Of a stretch of DNA of 36,388 nucleotides, positions 25,286 through 29,020 are shown piece by piece. The position numbers were made by a program, and so were the translations under genes. Position 1 is the first letter of the stretch, and each line of letters begins with the position of its first letter. Origin of the DNA: Oscillatoria sp. (GTDB taxonomy: Bacteria; Cyanobacteriota; Cyanobacteriia; Cyanobacteriales; Laspinemataceae); assembly GCA_011390515.1 (NCBI GenBank), contig JAABSJ010000033.1, forward strand, positions 1 through 36,388. Reading direction: 5' to 3'. The notes under the pieces were generated by a model. It saw only the letters and a program-made list of their open reading frames with translations. It had not been told where the DNA came from and ran no database searches.

Positions 25286-25852
25286 CTGGGTAACTAACTC
25301 TCTAACTGGCGATTTTCCGTCCGAAGTTAGCCACAGAGGGGGGACGGTCCGCATCGGTTTTTTGCTCTGGTGTCAATGAACTCAGAGGAAAGGGCTTACA
25401 GGTGGGAACCAGAATCAAGGTGATCGGGAGAGAGTAATAACGATCGCCTTTCTGAGATTTTGCGATCGCTTGATGACAATCGGAAATTTTTTCTGGATGA
25501 CCGAGATTGACCCCGCGCTCAGATCCAGGTTTGATCATCCTGCGGCCCTGTTTTCACTCCAGTCTCAGCCGCAGAATGGCGATCGCAAAAACATCTTTTT
25601 CGCTGTTAAATTTTATACAGTTTACAAACCCTATCCCCGCTAAACCAGTGGGGTAGAGTTCCGGGGGGCTGTTCCTCAAACTGGGCGTCATCGGAATAGG
25701 AGGTAAAAGAGGAAGGAGTCCTCAACCTTGGGCGATCGGCTCCCTTTCCCTCAATTTCATGCAAACCCCCAAAGGTAACTCACTTGATATGATTTACTCT
25801 TGGCAGGCGGTGACAAGTGAGGACCACAAAAGTGAGATTAAAAGCCAAGACT
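25286..25852. other. Spacer between convergent genes
   Basis: About 570 bases between the ends of the pentapeptide-repeat gene and the hsdM-like gene. A minus-strand frame of 78 codons (25302-25538) has no recognisable features and lacks a good start. No clear terminator hairpin is visible for either flanking gene. Confidence 0.4.
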
Positions 25853-27394
25853 TTAACACCTGAGTCTTTTAAAATCTTGCAAAAGCTCAGATAACTCCCG
25901 GTTTTTAACCTCTAGGAGTGCTAAGAGTTCTTCTCGACTCCGAATTTCTGGGGTCACCTTCCTCTGAGGATTAACAGCTTTGAGGTCAAAATTTTTTGCC
26001 TCTATTTGTTCTCGGGAAATGGTCCAACTATGAGAACCAATGCTTTGGGTCGGTAACCGCTTGAAAAAATCTTCAAAATCCTCCAGACTTAATAATTTTT
26101 TTTTGCTTACTTTCAAATCAGAAAGATCATAATACCAGATTTTTTCCGTGGGTTTACCCTTGGTAAAAAACAGCAAATTCGTTTTCAACGTTGTTCCCGC
26201 ATTTGCAAATACCCCTTCAGGTAAACTAACAATACACCAGACATCACATTCTTGGAGTAACCGTTGCTTAATTTGGACAAATGCTGCCTCACTCGTCCGA
26301 AACAGAACCCCTTCATCCAGGACAATTCCACAGCGTCCACCGGGTTTAAGACTATTCAGGATATCTTGCAAGAAAAGGACCTGGGTTGAACTGGTTTTGA
26401 ATGCAAAACGACTCTGAACCTCTTTCCCTTCTTTCCCTCCAAATGGGGGATTCGTTAAGATAATATCAAAGTGATTGGGTACATCTTGAAATAAGTCCTC
26501 ATAAATCCCCTGTCTCGTCAGGGTATTGCCATGCCATAAATGGGGTTCATCCAGTCCATGAAGGACCAAATTGGCTAAGGCGATCGGGTAAATTAAATTC
26601 TCTTTTTCTCTTCCATAGAAGGTGTTTTGGATAGGTTCTAAGTCTTGATGCAGATGTCTGTCCCGATTTTGATGGATAAAGGCGTAGGATTCAGCCAGAA
26701 AACCGCCTGTTCCACAGGATGGGTCATAAACCGTTTCACCATTTTGGGGGGCGATCGCCCTCACCATCGCCCGCACAATTTCACGCGGCGTAAAAAATTG
26801 CCCCCCATCGTTTGACTTTTCTCCCATTTTGAGCAGCAGTCCTTCATAAAGCTGTGAAATGGGAAAAATATGCGTTTTATCTACATTGTCACAACGGATC
26901 TCATGGACTTTATCCAGAATTTCTATCAAATTCTCTTCCGTATCAATCTTCACTGTATCGACACTCGATACAATCTGGCTAACGACCTTCTGCCGTGATG
27001 TGACATTGGGTTGGTCTTTAAGCGCTTTGAGATAGGGAATTAACTGCTCATTAACAAACCTAAACAAGGCTCCGACCGAACTAAGCTGTAATTCCAACCG
27101 CTTTGTTCCAGTCGGATTGCCCCAATCTTGCCAGCGATACGGTGAGGGAATCGAAAAAGGGTAGGGTTTTCCTGTACCCTCAATGTTCTGCGCCTCATGG
27201 GTTTCTTGTTCATCCAAAATCCGTAAGAACAGAATCCAGGTCAATTCGGGAATATATTGCATCGCACCAGCACAATTGGAGCGTCGCATGACGTCACAAA
27301 TGCTCTTAATAGCCGCATTGAGTTCCTGGGGCTTCTTGAAAATCTTACCCTTGCTACCCTGCCGATTTTGAGCCATTTTATCCGGATTCCTCAT
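25853..27394 (-). CDS. hsdM: Type I-like DNA adenine methyltransferase subunit (HsdM)
   Basis: N6-adenine DNA methyltransferase of the HsdM family (513 aa), the modification subunit that works with an HsdS specificity protein. The N-terminal helical HsdM domain (ELNAAIKSICDVMRRSN ... ELTWILFLRILDEQE) is followed by GQFFTPREIVRAMV. SAM-binding motif I is DPSCGTGGF (224-232) and catalytic motif IV is NPPFGG (315-320), both intact. A C-terminal coiled coil (SREELLALLEVKNRELSELL) probably contacts HsdS. The ATG at 27394 overlaps the TGA of the upstream gene (ATGA) and has AGGGA just upstream, indicating translational coupling. It is the last gene of a three-gene operon with a nuclease-like protein and a half-size HsdS. 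No helicase-containing HsdR is found on either side. Confidence 0.93.
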   Translation of the reverse strand: MRNPDKMAQNRQGSKGKIFKKPQELNAAIKSICDVMRRSNCAGAMQYIPELTWILFLRILDEQETHEAQNIEGTGKPYPFSIPSPYRWQDWGNPTGTKRLELQLSSVGALFRFVNEQLIPYLKALKDQPNVTSRQKVVSQIVSSVDTVKIDTEENLIEILDKVHEIRCDNVDKTHIFPISQLYEGLLLKMGEKSNDGGQFFTPREIVRAMVRAIAPQNGETVYDPSCGTGGFLAESYAFIHQNRDRHLHQDLEPIQNTFYGREKENLIYPIALANLVLHGLDEPHLWHGNTLTRQGIYEDLFQDVPNHFDIILTNPPFGGKEGKEVQSRFAFKTSSTQVLFLQDILNSLKPGGRCGIVLDEGVLFRTSEAAFVQIKQRLLQECDVWCIVSLPEGVFANAGTTLKTNLLFFTKGKPTEKIWYYDLSDLKVSKKKLLSLEDFEDFFKRLPTQSIGSHSWTISREQIEAKNFDLKAVNPQRKVTPEIRSREELLALLEVKNRELSELLQDFKRLRC

Positions 27395-28200
27395 TCTTCC
27401 CTTTGATTTTTTAAGTTGTACTTTCTTCTAGATTCAACGATGTCAGTAAATTGAAGATAACGTTGAATATACAGAGAAAGCTTAAAAGGTTCTTTTTTCC
27501 TTGTAGTATGTACCAACCTAAGAATTTTTCCAGCATTGCCTTCATCTTGTTTTAGCTCCCCGGGCTGTCCCTTTTTCGGAACCAATATCCTGTCAATTTC
27601 TACTCGACCTCCTCGTAATTTAACACTTTCATCTCTTTCTCGGGCCAATTCCGATGCTGGGACAACAACAAACGAAAAAATGCTGGGATATTCGCAGAGC
27701 GTTCCATTTTCTAACTTGTTCTTAAACCACTCCCATCCGATGAGAATAACCACATCTTTCTCACCTTGAATTAGGCTATTTAAAACTTCAAAGCGAGCAG
27801 ACTGTTCATCCGAATCTGCATCGACTGCTTTCATTTCAATTCGGACTGAAGGTTGTAACCAGCGATCACGCATTAAAAAATCAGGATACTTATGTGCTAC
27901 CTCGAAGGTTAGGCGCAAATCCTCTTCAAACGCTTGATGAATCAGCCAGTCCATTGTAGCACTCACGGCATATTCCAGAATCGTGCCTAACCGGGTTCTA
28001 TACGATGAGAGTTGCCGCTTTTCTAAAGGGAGAGGCTCGGTTATGCGATCGCGTTTGACCAACTGTCTAGGAGCAAAACTATCATTAACTTCCTGCACCG
28101 CCGTTTGCATCAATAGGCTGACAAACAGGGTTATTCCATCTAAATTGGCCTGATTTTCTGCAATTTTCTGGCCCAGGTTTTTAATTTTTGCTGTCGTCAT
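27391..28200 (-). CDS. PD-(D/E)XK nuclease-like protein of a restriction-modification operon
   Basis: A 269-residue protein with no family name I can give. It contains a credible PD-(D/E)XK signature: PDFLMRDRWLQPSVRIEMK, in which D107, E122 and K124 (from the ATG at 28200) would bind metal and activate water. It is preceded by an acidic helix (RTRLGTILEYAVS) as in many restriction nucleases and followed by a hydrophobic strand (DVVILIGWEWF). No helicase or DNA-binding domain is visible. AAGGAG lies four bases before the ATG at 28200; a GTG at 28203 is less well spaced. It overlaps the hsdS stop (TGATG) and its own stop overlaps the hsdM start, so the three proteins are probably made together. 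The natural reading is the cutting subunit of the system. The nuclease call is inference from motif and context. Confidence 0.75.
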   Translation of the reverse strand: MTTAKIKNLGQKIAENQANLDGITLFVSLLMQTAVQEVNDSFAPRQLVKRDRITEPLPLEKRQLSSYRTRLGTILEYAVSATMDWLIHQAFEEDLRLTFEVAHKYPDFLMRDRWLQPSVRIEMKAVDADSDEQSARFEVLNSLIQGEKDVVILIGWEWFKNKLENGTLCEYPSIFSFVVVPASELARERDESVKLRGGRVEIDRILVPKKGQPGELKQDEGNAGKILRLVHTTRKKEPFKLSLYIQRYLQFTDIVESRRKYNLKNQREE

Positions 28201-28844
28201 CACTCTCCTTCAGATGCCAAAACTTGGAGCGAAAAATCCATGAGAATCCTGTGGGACAACTCTTCGATTAAAGTTAGTTGTTCTTGCAGTGCTTCTTTCA
28301 TTTTTTTAATTTTCATCATTTCTGCATCGATTTCATCGGCTAATTGTTCTTGGGTTTCAATATCGTTGGGAATTGGCACCGGGAGGGTTAACAGTTCTTT
28401 CAGATTGGCCCGGGGCATTCTTGAACCCGTTTTTCCTTGCATCGCAAAGGCAACCGTCTCCGGACGCCGAAATAACCATCCTAGATAACGTCGGGAGACA
28501 TTAGGACGAGGCAACAATGGAATCAATTCTGTGGTACAGCGCCCCGAGAATGTGGGTAATGCAACTTTATTGAGATAGGGGCGTAACTTTCCATAAAGAA
28601 TATGTCTGGGGTCAAACGCAAAGGTTGTACTTTGCCCTTCATCCAATGCTAACTCTGCGCGGTCCCGCAGGAGACGCCCCGTATTGCTTTCTATATGTTC
28701 TAAACTTAAATAGGGTAACTGTTGAGCCTGTGCAGACTTTGGATCTATAATAGTTCTATCTTCAGAACATAAATCACTCAATTTCATCCAAGACCATCCC
28801 TGGACCATTGGCCGGGTGGAAGCATTCATGATTTGGGGGTTCAT
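28200..28844 (-). CDS. hsdS: Half-size restriction/modification specificity subunit (HsdS)
   Basis: A target-recognition protein of the HsdS family, only 214 residues against the usual 400 or so. It has one target-recognition domain (WSWMKLSDLCSEDRTIIDP, YLSLEHIES, HILYGKLRPYLNKVALP, RMPRANLKELLTLPVPIP) and one conserved helical spacer (LADEIDAEMMKIKKMKEALQ...LIEELSHRILMDF). Half-S proteins are known to dimerise through the helices and then recognise a two-part palindromic site, so a symmetrical target is expected here. ATG at 28844 is the first of three possible starts (28829 next); ribosome sites are weak. First gene of the operon, overlapping the nuclease-like gene. A truncated full-length hsdS is less likely, because the gene ends cleanly within a coupled TGATG overlap. 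Confidence 0.9.
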   Translation of the reverse strand: MNPQIMNASTRPMVQGWSWMKLSDLCSEDRTIIDPKSAQAQQLPYLSLEHIESNTGRLLRDRAELALDEGQSTTFAFDPRHILYGKLRPYLNKVALPTFSGRCTTELIPLLPRPNVSRRYLGWLFRRPETVAFAMQGKTGSRMPRANLKELLTLPVPIPNDIETQEQLADEIDAEMMKIKKMKEALQEQLTLIEELSHRILMDFSLQVLASEGE

Positions 28845-29020
28845 TGGGTTTGTTCACGATCTTGTTTTCGCCTCACTGTGCAGGAACGAGTTAGTTTCCC
28901 TCATTTGCACCGTTAAAGCCTATCATAAAATTGATCGTCCAACTCTACTCGATTTTTGTACAATTCGTAATGCTCCAACTGAGATTGGATAGACTGCTAA
29001 ACTCTCAAAATCCGATGGCA

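What the first reader, a model, noticed from the sequence alone, without database searches (positions are those of the whole stretch)
25853..28844. Restriction-modification operon with half-HsdS, stand-alone PD-(D/E)XK protein and HsdM, but no HsdR translocase
Seen: three genes overlapping by a few bases (TGATG and ATGA junctions), encoding a one-TRD HsdS, a 269-aa protein with PD...ExK spacing (D107, E122, K124), and a complete HsdM. No helicase domain is encoded on either side (acnB upstream, a spacer and pentapeptide-repeat gene downstream). Known: type I systems need the HsdR helicase-nuclease. Type IIB enzymes such as BcgI use a nuclease-methylase fusion plus an S subunit and cut without translocation. 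Inference: this is an unfused, type IIB-like system, possibly cutting at or beside a palindromic bipartite site set by an HsdS dimer. The split architecture could represent an undescribed or poorly described class.
Basis: partly seen in the sequence, partly recalled or inferred. Interest (0 to 1): 0.75.

Follow-up and report, generated by a model that had tools for sequence, protein, structure and literature searches.

The report
DrdI-like enzyme within type I operon
A cyanobacterium carries a DNA-cutting defence operon that pairs a type I-style methylating pair with a simple, motor-less cutter related to the restriction enzyme DrdI; hybrids of this kind are already known, but the relatives found here suggest how they may arise from type I systems.

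Summary
The three genes are as described: half-HsdS (214 aa), a 269-aa nuclease and a full HsdM, overlapping by 1 and 4 nt. No HsdR or SWI2/SNF2 motor was found in the 87.5%-complete genome. The middle protein is a homologue of the presumed DrdI endonuclease (31% over 217 aa). E76, D107, E122 and K124 are kept in 10 of 10 aligned rows, window included, and its model most resembles SwaI, HincII and EcoRV. Half-S plus HsdM-like M plus stand-alone type II endonuclease is the published plan of AhdI, Type IIH or 'type 1½'. So the class is known, and type IIB is the poorer comparison. Unusual is the parentage: M is of type I lineage, its nearest kin mostly in R-S-M operons, two with half-size S, while R belongs to a family beside fused M~S methylases in 12 of 19 loci examined. 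S-R-M recurs in Phormidium and an Anaerolineae MAG; a same-genus genome lacks it. dN/dS is 0.11-0.29. Whether R acts alone or on the M2S2 complex is open.

The parts
28200..28844 (-). half-HsdS, one target recognition domain plus C-terminal helix, 214 aa
   Evidence: 28.8% identity over 170 aa to the C-terminal TRD of the pDrdI methylase; the AF2 model was poor (pLDDT 56.7), the helix 162-203 is its best-predicted part
27391..28200 (-). DrdI-family type II restriction endonuclease (R), PD-(D/E)XK, 269 aa; E76, D107, E122, K124
   Evidence: PADLOC REase_II PDLC03462 E 2.9e-20; the pDrdI protein scores 943 bits on the same profile; AF2 pLDDT 78.2, pTM 0.79; SwaI Z 8.7, HincII 7.1, EcoRV 6.6
25853..27394 (-). 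HsdM, N6-adenine methyltransferase of type I lineage, 513 aa, NPPF motif
   Evidence: Pfam N6_Mtase 2.3e-59 and HsdM_N 7.5e-11; PADLOC MTase_I PDLC03036 569 bits; trees
28198..28202 (-). S/R junction TGATG, 1-nt overlap
   Evidence: sequence read
27391..27394 (-). R/M junction ATGA, 4-nt overlap
   Evidence: sequence read
25668..28958 (.). stretch carrying the operon that is absent from a same-genus genome (empty site between acnB and the pentapeptide gene)
   Evidence: blastn of the window against G449 (L099): matches end at window 28959 and resume at 25667, with 100 bases between them in L099
29027..29051 (-). terminator-like hairpin after acnB (11-pair stem), so the operon probably has its own promoter (inference)
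   Evidence: consensus scan; 5 terminator-like sites found in the region, 4.0 expected in shuffles

Best explanation
A Type IIH-like ('type 1½') restriction-modification system. Two HsdM and two half-HsdS form an M2S2 methyltransferase that recognises a bipartite palindrome (half-site, gap, inverted half-site) and puts N6-methyladenine on each strand. A separate DrdI-family PD-(D/E)XK endonuclease, probably a homodimer, cuts the same unmethylated site, within or close to the gap, without ATP, translocation or HsdR. The operon is a hybrid: M (and probably S) descend from a type I locus, while HsdR is gone and a DrdI-type endonuclease sits between S and M. Shown: the genes, their order, selection, the homologies and the absence of a motor from the held assembly. 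Inferred: stoichiometry, the palindromic site, cutting inside the site, and restriction activity.
For: R is a homologue of the 396-aa protein on plasmid pDrdI, the plasmid to which M.DrdI (GACN6GTC) is assigned (PMC6430315, whole text). E76/D107/E122/K124 are kept in 10 of 10 rows, window included. The model is closest to EcoRV-like type II enzymes. R stands beside, or is fused to, a methylase with a TRD in 18 of 19 examined loci, window included. Half-S and M match type I subunits by profile and solved structure. AhdI is the functional precedent. No motor in the held assembly. Purifying selection on all three genes. The nearest M kin lie in type I operons, order R-S-M, and trees put the window M among them.
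Against: No activity or methylome data. Foldseek alone is weak (best E 3.6e-3, SwaI); the tool's own note says that a Z of 7 to 8 is typical of the best match of models without a clear Foldseek match, so Z 8.7 is only just above that. R is 127 aa shorter than the pDrdI protein, so recognition could differ. R lies between S and M with overlapping ends, an odd place for an autonomous nuclease, and one relative has M~S~R in one chain, which fits a complex at least as well. The genome is 87.5% complete, so a missing hsdR is not excluded. S also matches a type II half-S profile (PDLC03590, E 4.3e-19), and TRDs are variable, so the type I descent of S is less sure than that of M.
Confidence: 0.75

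Rival explanations
1. Motor-less type I / unfused type IIB-like: R has no useful site recognition of its own and is docked on the M2S2 complex, which supplies specificity and decides between cutting and methylating.
For: S-R-M with 1- and 4-nt overlaps; a relative in the same order (G638) carries MTase, TRD and the same nuclease in one 1041-aa chain; the short R forms lack the C-terminal 127 aa of the pDrdI protein; G278 keeps an R with intact catalytic residues and no DrdI-type methylase in the genome at E 1e-20, odd for an autonomous nuclease (it does hold an HsdM of another kind, 36% identical).
Against: DrdI is described as a prototype type II enzyme (PMC6430315) and AhdI's REase as Type IIP-like (PMC4081073). 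In 17 of the 18 loci with a methylase R is a gene of its own, and in the nine fused-type loci L022-L030 it points against the methylase gene. Model residues 22-250 align with EcoRV-like enzymes that bind their own site.
Confidence: 0.18
2. Incomplete type I system whose HsdR is encoded elsewhere or was lost in assembly; the middle gene is an accessory nuclease.
For: M is of type I lineage; the assembly is 87.5% complete with 376 contigs.
Against: No TIGR00348 or PF18766 match in the held assembly. In the Phormidium genome TIGR00348 gave one 19-bit match under the cut-off (E 6.7e-4), and none in the Anaerolineae MAG. The middle gene is conserved in place in three loci and belongs to a restriction-enzyme family.
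Confidence: 0.03
3. Methylation-only (epigenetic) operon with a dead nuclease.
For: No restriction activity has been shown.
Against: R has the lowest dN/dS of the three genes (0.11) and E76, D107, E122 and K124 are intact.
Confidence: 0.04

Closest known systems
AhdI R-M system (Type IIH, 'type 1½'; M.AhdI 2M+2S, GACN5GTC)
   Same: Separate half-S and HsdM-like M plus stand-alone type II REase, no HsdR; M.AhdI has S of 25 kDa and M of 60 kDa (PMC2878638, part 1 of 4 read), sizes like the 214- and 513-aa proteins here.
   Different: M and S here score best on type I profiles (PDLC03036, PDLC03194), not on the type II M and half-S profiles PDLC03218 and PDLC03590. R sits between S and M. The AhdI sequences were not at hand, so homology was not tested; AhdI's controller protein C.AhdI (seen as a reference title) has no counterpart among the three genes.
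DrdI R-M system (GACN6GTC; methylase listed as two gamma-M~[GAC] chains in PMC3874165)
   Same: Homologous endonuclease (31% over 217 aa) and a homologous TRD (28.8% over 170 aa).
   Different: The pDrdI methylase is one fused M~TRD chain of another lineage, its presumed REase is 396 aa, and the two genes are divergent, about 2.3 kb apart.
Type I R-S-M operons of Carboxydocella (pCCELLA01) and Meiothermus (pMtWR-220)
   Same: HsdM 64.7% and 60.2% identical.
   Different: They encode a helicase HsdR and an HsdS of 418 and 399 aa, the size of two TRDs.
BcgI / BsaXI (type IIB)
   Same: Type I-like M and S architecture and a PD-(D/E)XK nuclease without a translocase; the half-S matches S.BsaXI (E 6.9e-5).
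   Different: There the nuclease is fused to M, and S of BcgI, CspCI and BsaXI has two recognition domains (passages of PMC3874165 and PMC4081073); here R is a separate DrdI-family protein and S has one TRD.

Membership tests
Type IIH / 'type 1½' (AhdI-like) | type I-like M subunit and separate S subunit | tested here: met
Type IIH / 'type 1½' (AhdI-like) | S is a single TRD (half-S) | tested here: met
   214 aa, aligns to one half of full S subunits
Type IIH / 'type 1½' (AhdI-like) | stand-alone type II (IIP-like) REase in place of HsdR | tested here: met
   homology to the pDrdI protein, fold, conserved residues; by homology only, activity not tested
Type IIH / 'type 1½' (AhdI-like) | M2S2 methylating a symmetrical bipartite sequence | not testable with these tools
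   needs purification and methylome calling
Type IIH / 'type 1½' (AhdI-like) | sequence homology to the AhdI proteins | not tested
   the AhdI sequences were not at hand
DrdI-family endonuclease | sequence homology over the catalytic region, with E, PD and ExK positions kept | tested here: met
   31.3% over 217 aa, E 5.6e-24 in a set of 10 proteins; E 9e-18 against 72,556 plasmids; 10 of 10 rows keep E76/D107/E122/K124
DrdI-family endonuclease | specificity GACN6GTC | not testable with these tools
   TRD only 28.8% identical, too far to transfer specificity
Type I R-M | HsdR helicase-translocase | tested here: not met
   (assembly 87.5% complete)
Type I R-M | S subunit with two TRDs | tested here: not met
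   two half-S type I operons were found in G109, so this feature is not strict
Type IIB (BcgI-like) | nuclease fused to the methyltransferase chain | tested here: not met
   R and M are separate ORFs
Type IIB (BcgI-like) | cleavage on both sides of the site | not testable with these tools
   needs a cleavage assay
EcoRV-like (SwaI/HincII/EcoRV) nuclease fold | fold match well above background | tested here: inconclusive
   SwaI Z 8.7, rmsd 4.4, 156 aligned; HincII 7.1, 3.5, 140; EcoRV 6.6, 4.7, 149; Foldseek best E 3.6e-3

The most novel reading that the evidence does not exclude
The S-R-M operon is the product of a natural path from type I to type II: R-S-M, then R-½S-M (as in G109), then loss of HsdR and capture of a DrdI-type nuclease. 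The nuclease now works as a motor-less replacement for HsdR, taking its specificity from the M2S2 complex. This runs against the published suggestion that 'type 1½' methylases represent the ancestral form of type I enzymes.
Probability: 0.18. Interest if true: 0.65.

Novelty: new variant of a known kind. Interest (0 to 1): 0.42.

Why it matters
It gives a natural series, in one HsdM clade, from type I operons through half-S type I operons to a motor-less hybrid, which makes the direction of evolution between type I and type II systems testable. [quoted passage not shown] PMC6158711 proposes a pathway from type I to type II (passages). It also offers a 3-gene system for asking whether a DrdI-type nuclease needs the methylase, and an uncharacterised specificity.

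Tried and rejected
Pfam and NCBIfam gave no family for the middle protein at E up to 1, nor did a PDB sequence search at E up to 10; only a PADLOC profile and the pDrdI hit named it. Phage records and one viral-contig scan gave no relative. Transfer of the GACN6GTC specificity to the window was rejected: the TRD identity to the pDrdI methylase (28.8%) is no higher than to a type I TRD of Salinivibrio (29.9%). The AF2 model of S (three rows) was too poor to use (pLDDT 56.7). The first M tree (26 rows, with 8 of the 12 fused methylases) had long branches and put the Anaerolineae M outside the window/type I group (93/90). A second tree (15 rows: all fused rows, G340, the own-genome C312 row and one of the two near-identical G109 rows left out) made the three S-R-M methylases one clade at 90/96, not starred; a single origin is therefore favoured, not shown. 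Terminal repeats that would mark a mobile element: nothing convincing; no tRNA in the window. VIA-align gives the human Rep15 chains, which are not restriction enzymes, Z 5.9-6.0, near EcoRV's 6.6, so the fold match is supporting evidence only. No tree of R was built; its grouping rests on identities. Literature: the listings showed no title or abstract start describing an S-R-M operon with a DrdI-type nuclease; I read only PMC6430315 whole, part 1 of 4 of PMC2878638, and passages of PMC3874165, PMC4081073, PMC6158711, PMC12602166 and PMC12707154. Use of 'Type IIH' varies: PMC12602166 gives BcgI and Sau42I as examples and speaks of fused genes (passages), and PMC4081073 calls the term rarely used. 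REBASE could not be searched and may list these genes as putative.
Full report
What is there. Three minus-strand genes, S (28844-28200), R (28200-27391) and M (27394-25853), overlap by 1 nt (TGATG) and 4 nt (ATGA). acnB lies upstream with a terminator-like hairpin after it; a pentapeptide-repeat ORF lies downstream on the other strand.

What the parts are. M is an N6-adenine methyltransferase with an HsdM N-terminal domain, nearest in the PDB to type I M subunits (5ybb, E 8.2e-91). S aligns to one half of type I S subunits. R has no Pfam, NCBIfam or PDB sequence match, but matches the PADLOC type II REase profile PDLC03462 (E 2.9e-20). Its only relative among plasmids (1 of 72,556 records at E 1e-3) is a 396-aa 'hypothetical protein' on plasmid pDrdI of Deinococcus wulumuqiensis NEB 479, about 2.3 kb from a 703-aa N-6 methylase. 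The genome paper assigns M.DrdI, GACN6GTC, to that plasmid (PMC6430315, whole text). That the 396-aa protein is R.DrdI is an inference from its neighbourhood and from its 943-bit match over the whole 396-position profile; the paper's table names methylases only.

Fold. An AF2 model from 11 rows has pLDDT 78.2 and pTM 0.79. VIA-align gives SwaI Z 8.7, HincII 7.1, EcoRV 6.6, SfiI 5.7 and BglI 5.5; the unrelated human Rep15 scores 6.0. Foldseek alone is weak (best E 3.6e-3). E76, D107, E122 and K124 are kept in 10 of 10 aligned rows, window included; P106 is N in two of them (G470, G711). Together with the homology this makes a PD-(D/E)XK restriction nuclease likely.

No translocase. TIGR00348 and PF18766 each gave 0 matches in the window's own genome, while ringing in 10 of 14 control genomes (for TIGR00348 5 of the 10 pass the cut-off). 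PF04313 gave two matches in short stand-alone ORFs. The assembly is 87.5% complete.

Survey of R. The scan of genome contigs gave 11 loci out of 79 candidate stretches. Profile searches gave 4 of 386 genomes of the window's phylum (PDLC03462), 9 of 388 of its order and 2 of 400 of the phylum of L021, own genome and L021's genome counted; viral contigs and phages none. Of 19 distinct loci examined, window included: 12 have R beside a fused M~TRD methylase (L022-L030, pDrdI, G149, G579); 3 have S-R-M with a type I-like HsdM (window, L020 Phormidium pseudopriestleyi, L021 Anaerolineae MAG); 2 have M plus half-S with R convergent (G470, G711); 1 has M~S~R in a single 1041-aa chain (G638); 1 is a lone R (G278). 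G357 is the same contig as L025 and G526 the same as L020, and were not counted again. One weak hit (G087, E 3.5e-4) was not examined. R in L022 is broken into two frames and in L030 cut by the contig end. Identities to the window: Phormidium S 84, R 94, M 90%; Anaerolineae S 53, R 63, M 58%; R of the fused-type loci L022-L030 40-46%.

Parentage. The window M is 65% and 60% identical to HsdM of type I operons on Carboxydocella and Meiothermus plasmids and 59-60% to those of G109 (two loci) and G060; G245 is 56% over part of its length. A helicase HsdR lies upstream in 5 of these 6 loci (truncated in one, L065); none was found in the 17-kb G245 stretch. Where R is present the order is R-S-M. 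In both G109 loci S is half-sized (239 and 205 aa) and no second half is found in the gap: natural half-S beside R, which is full length in L066 (819 aa). Of the 59 of 386 phylum genomes with an M relative at E 1e-60, I looked at the surroundings in 9 (10 stretches); the six more distant ones (35-38%) also have a type I R. Trees place the S-R-M methylases with the close type I clade (98/98; 100/100), far from the fused DrdI-type clade. Whether the three S-R-M methylases form one clade is favoured by the second tree (90/96) but not by the first. By profile, G470 and G711 match type II M, S and R profiles (PDLC03218, PDLC03590, PDLC03408), whereas the window M and S score best on type I profiles (569 against 84.5 bits; 104.8 against 67.3 bits). 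That the former set is the AhdI-like lineage is inferred from profile sizes only. The type I descent of S is less sure than that of M.

History and selection. acnB is followed by S-R-M in the window and in G526, a same-genus genome whose three proteins are identical to L020's. R was found in 2 of the 8 same-genus genomes listed. G449 shows an empty site: matches stop at window 28959 and resume at 25667, with 100 other bases between. G472, G503 and G427, and G229 of the same family, show no match after acnB in the stretches fetched; G482's contig ends there; G461 was not fetched. dN/dS between the window and L020/G526 is S 0.29, R 0.11, M 0.16, acnB 0.08; dS is 0.27-0.29 for all four, which fits joint inheritance with the surroundings, and all three genes have been kept under purifying selection.

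How it works. Best reading: M2S2 methylates, a DrdI-type dimer cuts the same bipartite palindrome, no motor. This is the AhdI plan, called Type IIH or 'type 1½' (passages of PMC4081073 and PMC3874165; PMC2878638 part 1 of 4); the name is used differently elsewhere (PMC12602166 passages). Observations that fit a docked nuclease instead: overlap of R with S and M, the single-chain M~S~R relative, and the lone intact R in G278 without a DrdI-type methylase at E 1e-20. I give that 0.18.

Verdict. It is a new variant of Type IIH whose methylase comes from type I and whose nuclease comes from the DrdI family, with relatives that lay out a plausible path. The direction of that path is inference.

Noticed in passing
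L085:3496-6621 (G638): A single 1041-aa chain with methyltransferase, TRD and DrdI-type nuclease at the C-terminus, unlike type IIG enzymes, whose cleavage domain is N-terminal (PMC3874165).
   Followed up: partly
L066:3641-9190 and L065:4065-9355 (G109): Type I operons with half-sized S (205 and 239 aa) between HsdR (819 aa in L066, a 478-aa piece in L065) and HsdM; in L066 two small ORFs (86 and 148 aa, toxin-antitoxin-like by eye) lie between R and S.
   Followed up: partly
L013:8992-10023 (G278): A lone DrdI-type nuclease with intact catalytic residues; no relative of the methylases tested in the 20-kb stretch and no DrdI-type methylase in the 99%-complete genome at E 1e-20.
   Followed up: partly
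L011:3752-4207, L003:690-1100, L085:6949-6599: A small protein (136-151 aa) shared by the pDrdI and G149 loci (32% over 79 aa) and by G149 and G638 (55% over 119 aa), not found in the window or the other 18 loci searched: a possible accessory gene of DrdI-type systems.
   Followed up: partly
L088:4434-7979 and L105:6065-9330: M + half-S with a convergent R, matching type II M, S and REase profiles: probable further AhdI-like systems in G470 and G711.
   Followed up: partly
L032:3315-5716: Meiothermus type I operon with a TnpB gene and a PDDEXK-annotated gene between R and S; homologues of the latter sit between S and R in L069 and L072.
   Followed up: no
G000 contigs C312, C317, C261, C7, C354: The window's genome has three further N6_Mtase loci and two stand-alone HSDR_N ORFs; no HsdR motor was found in the assembly.
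   Followed up: partly
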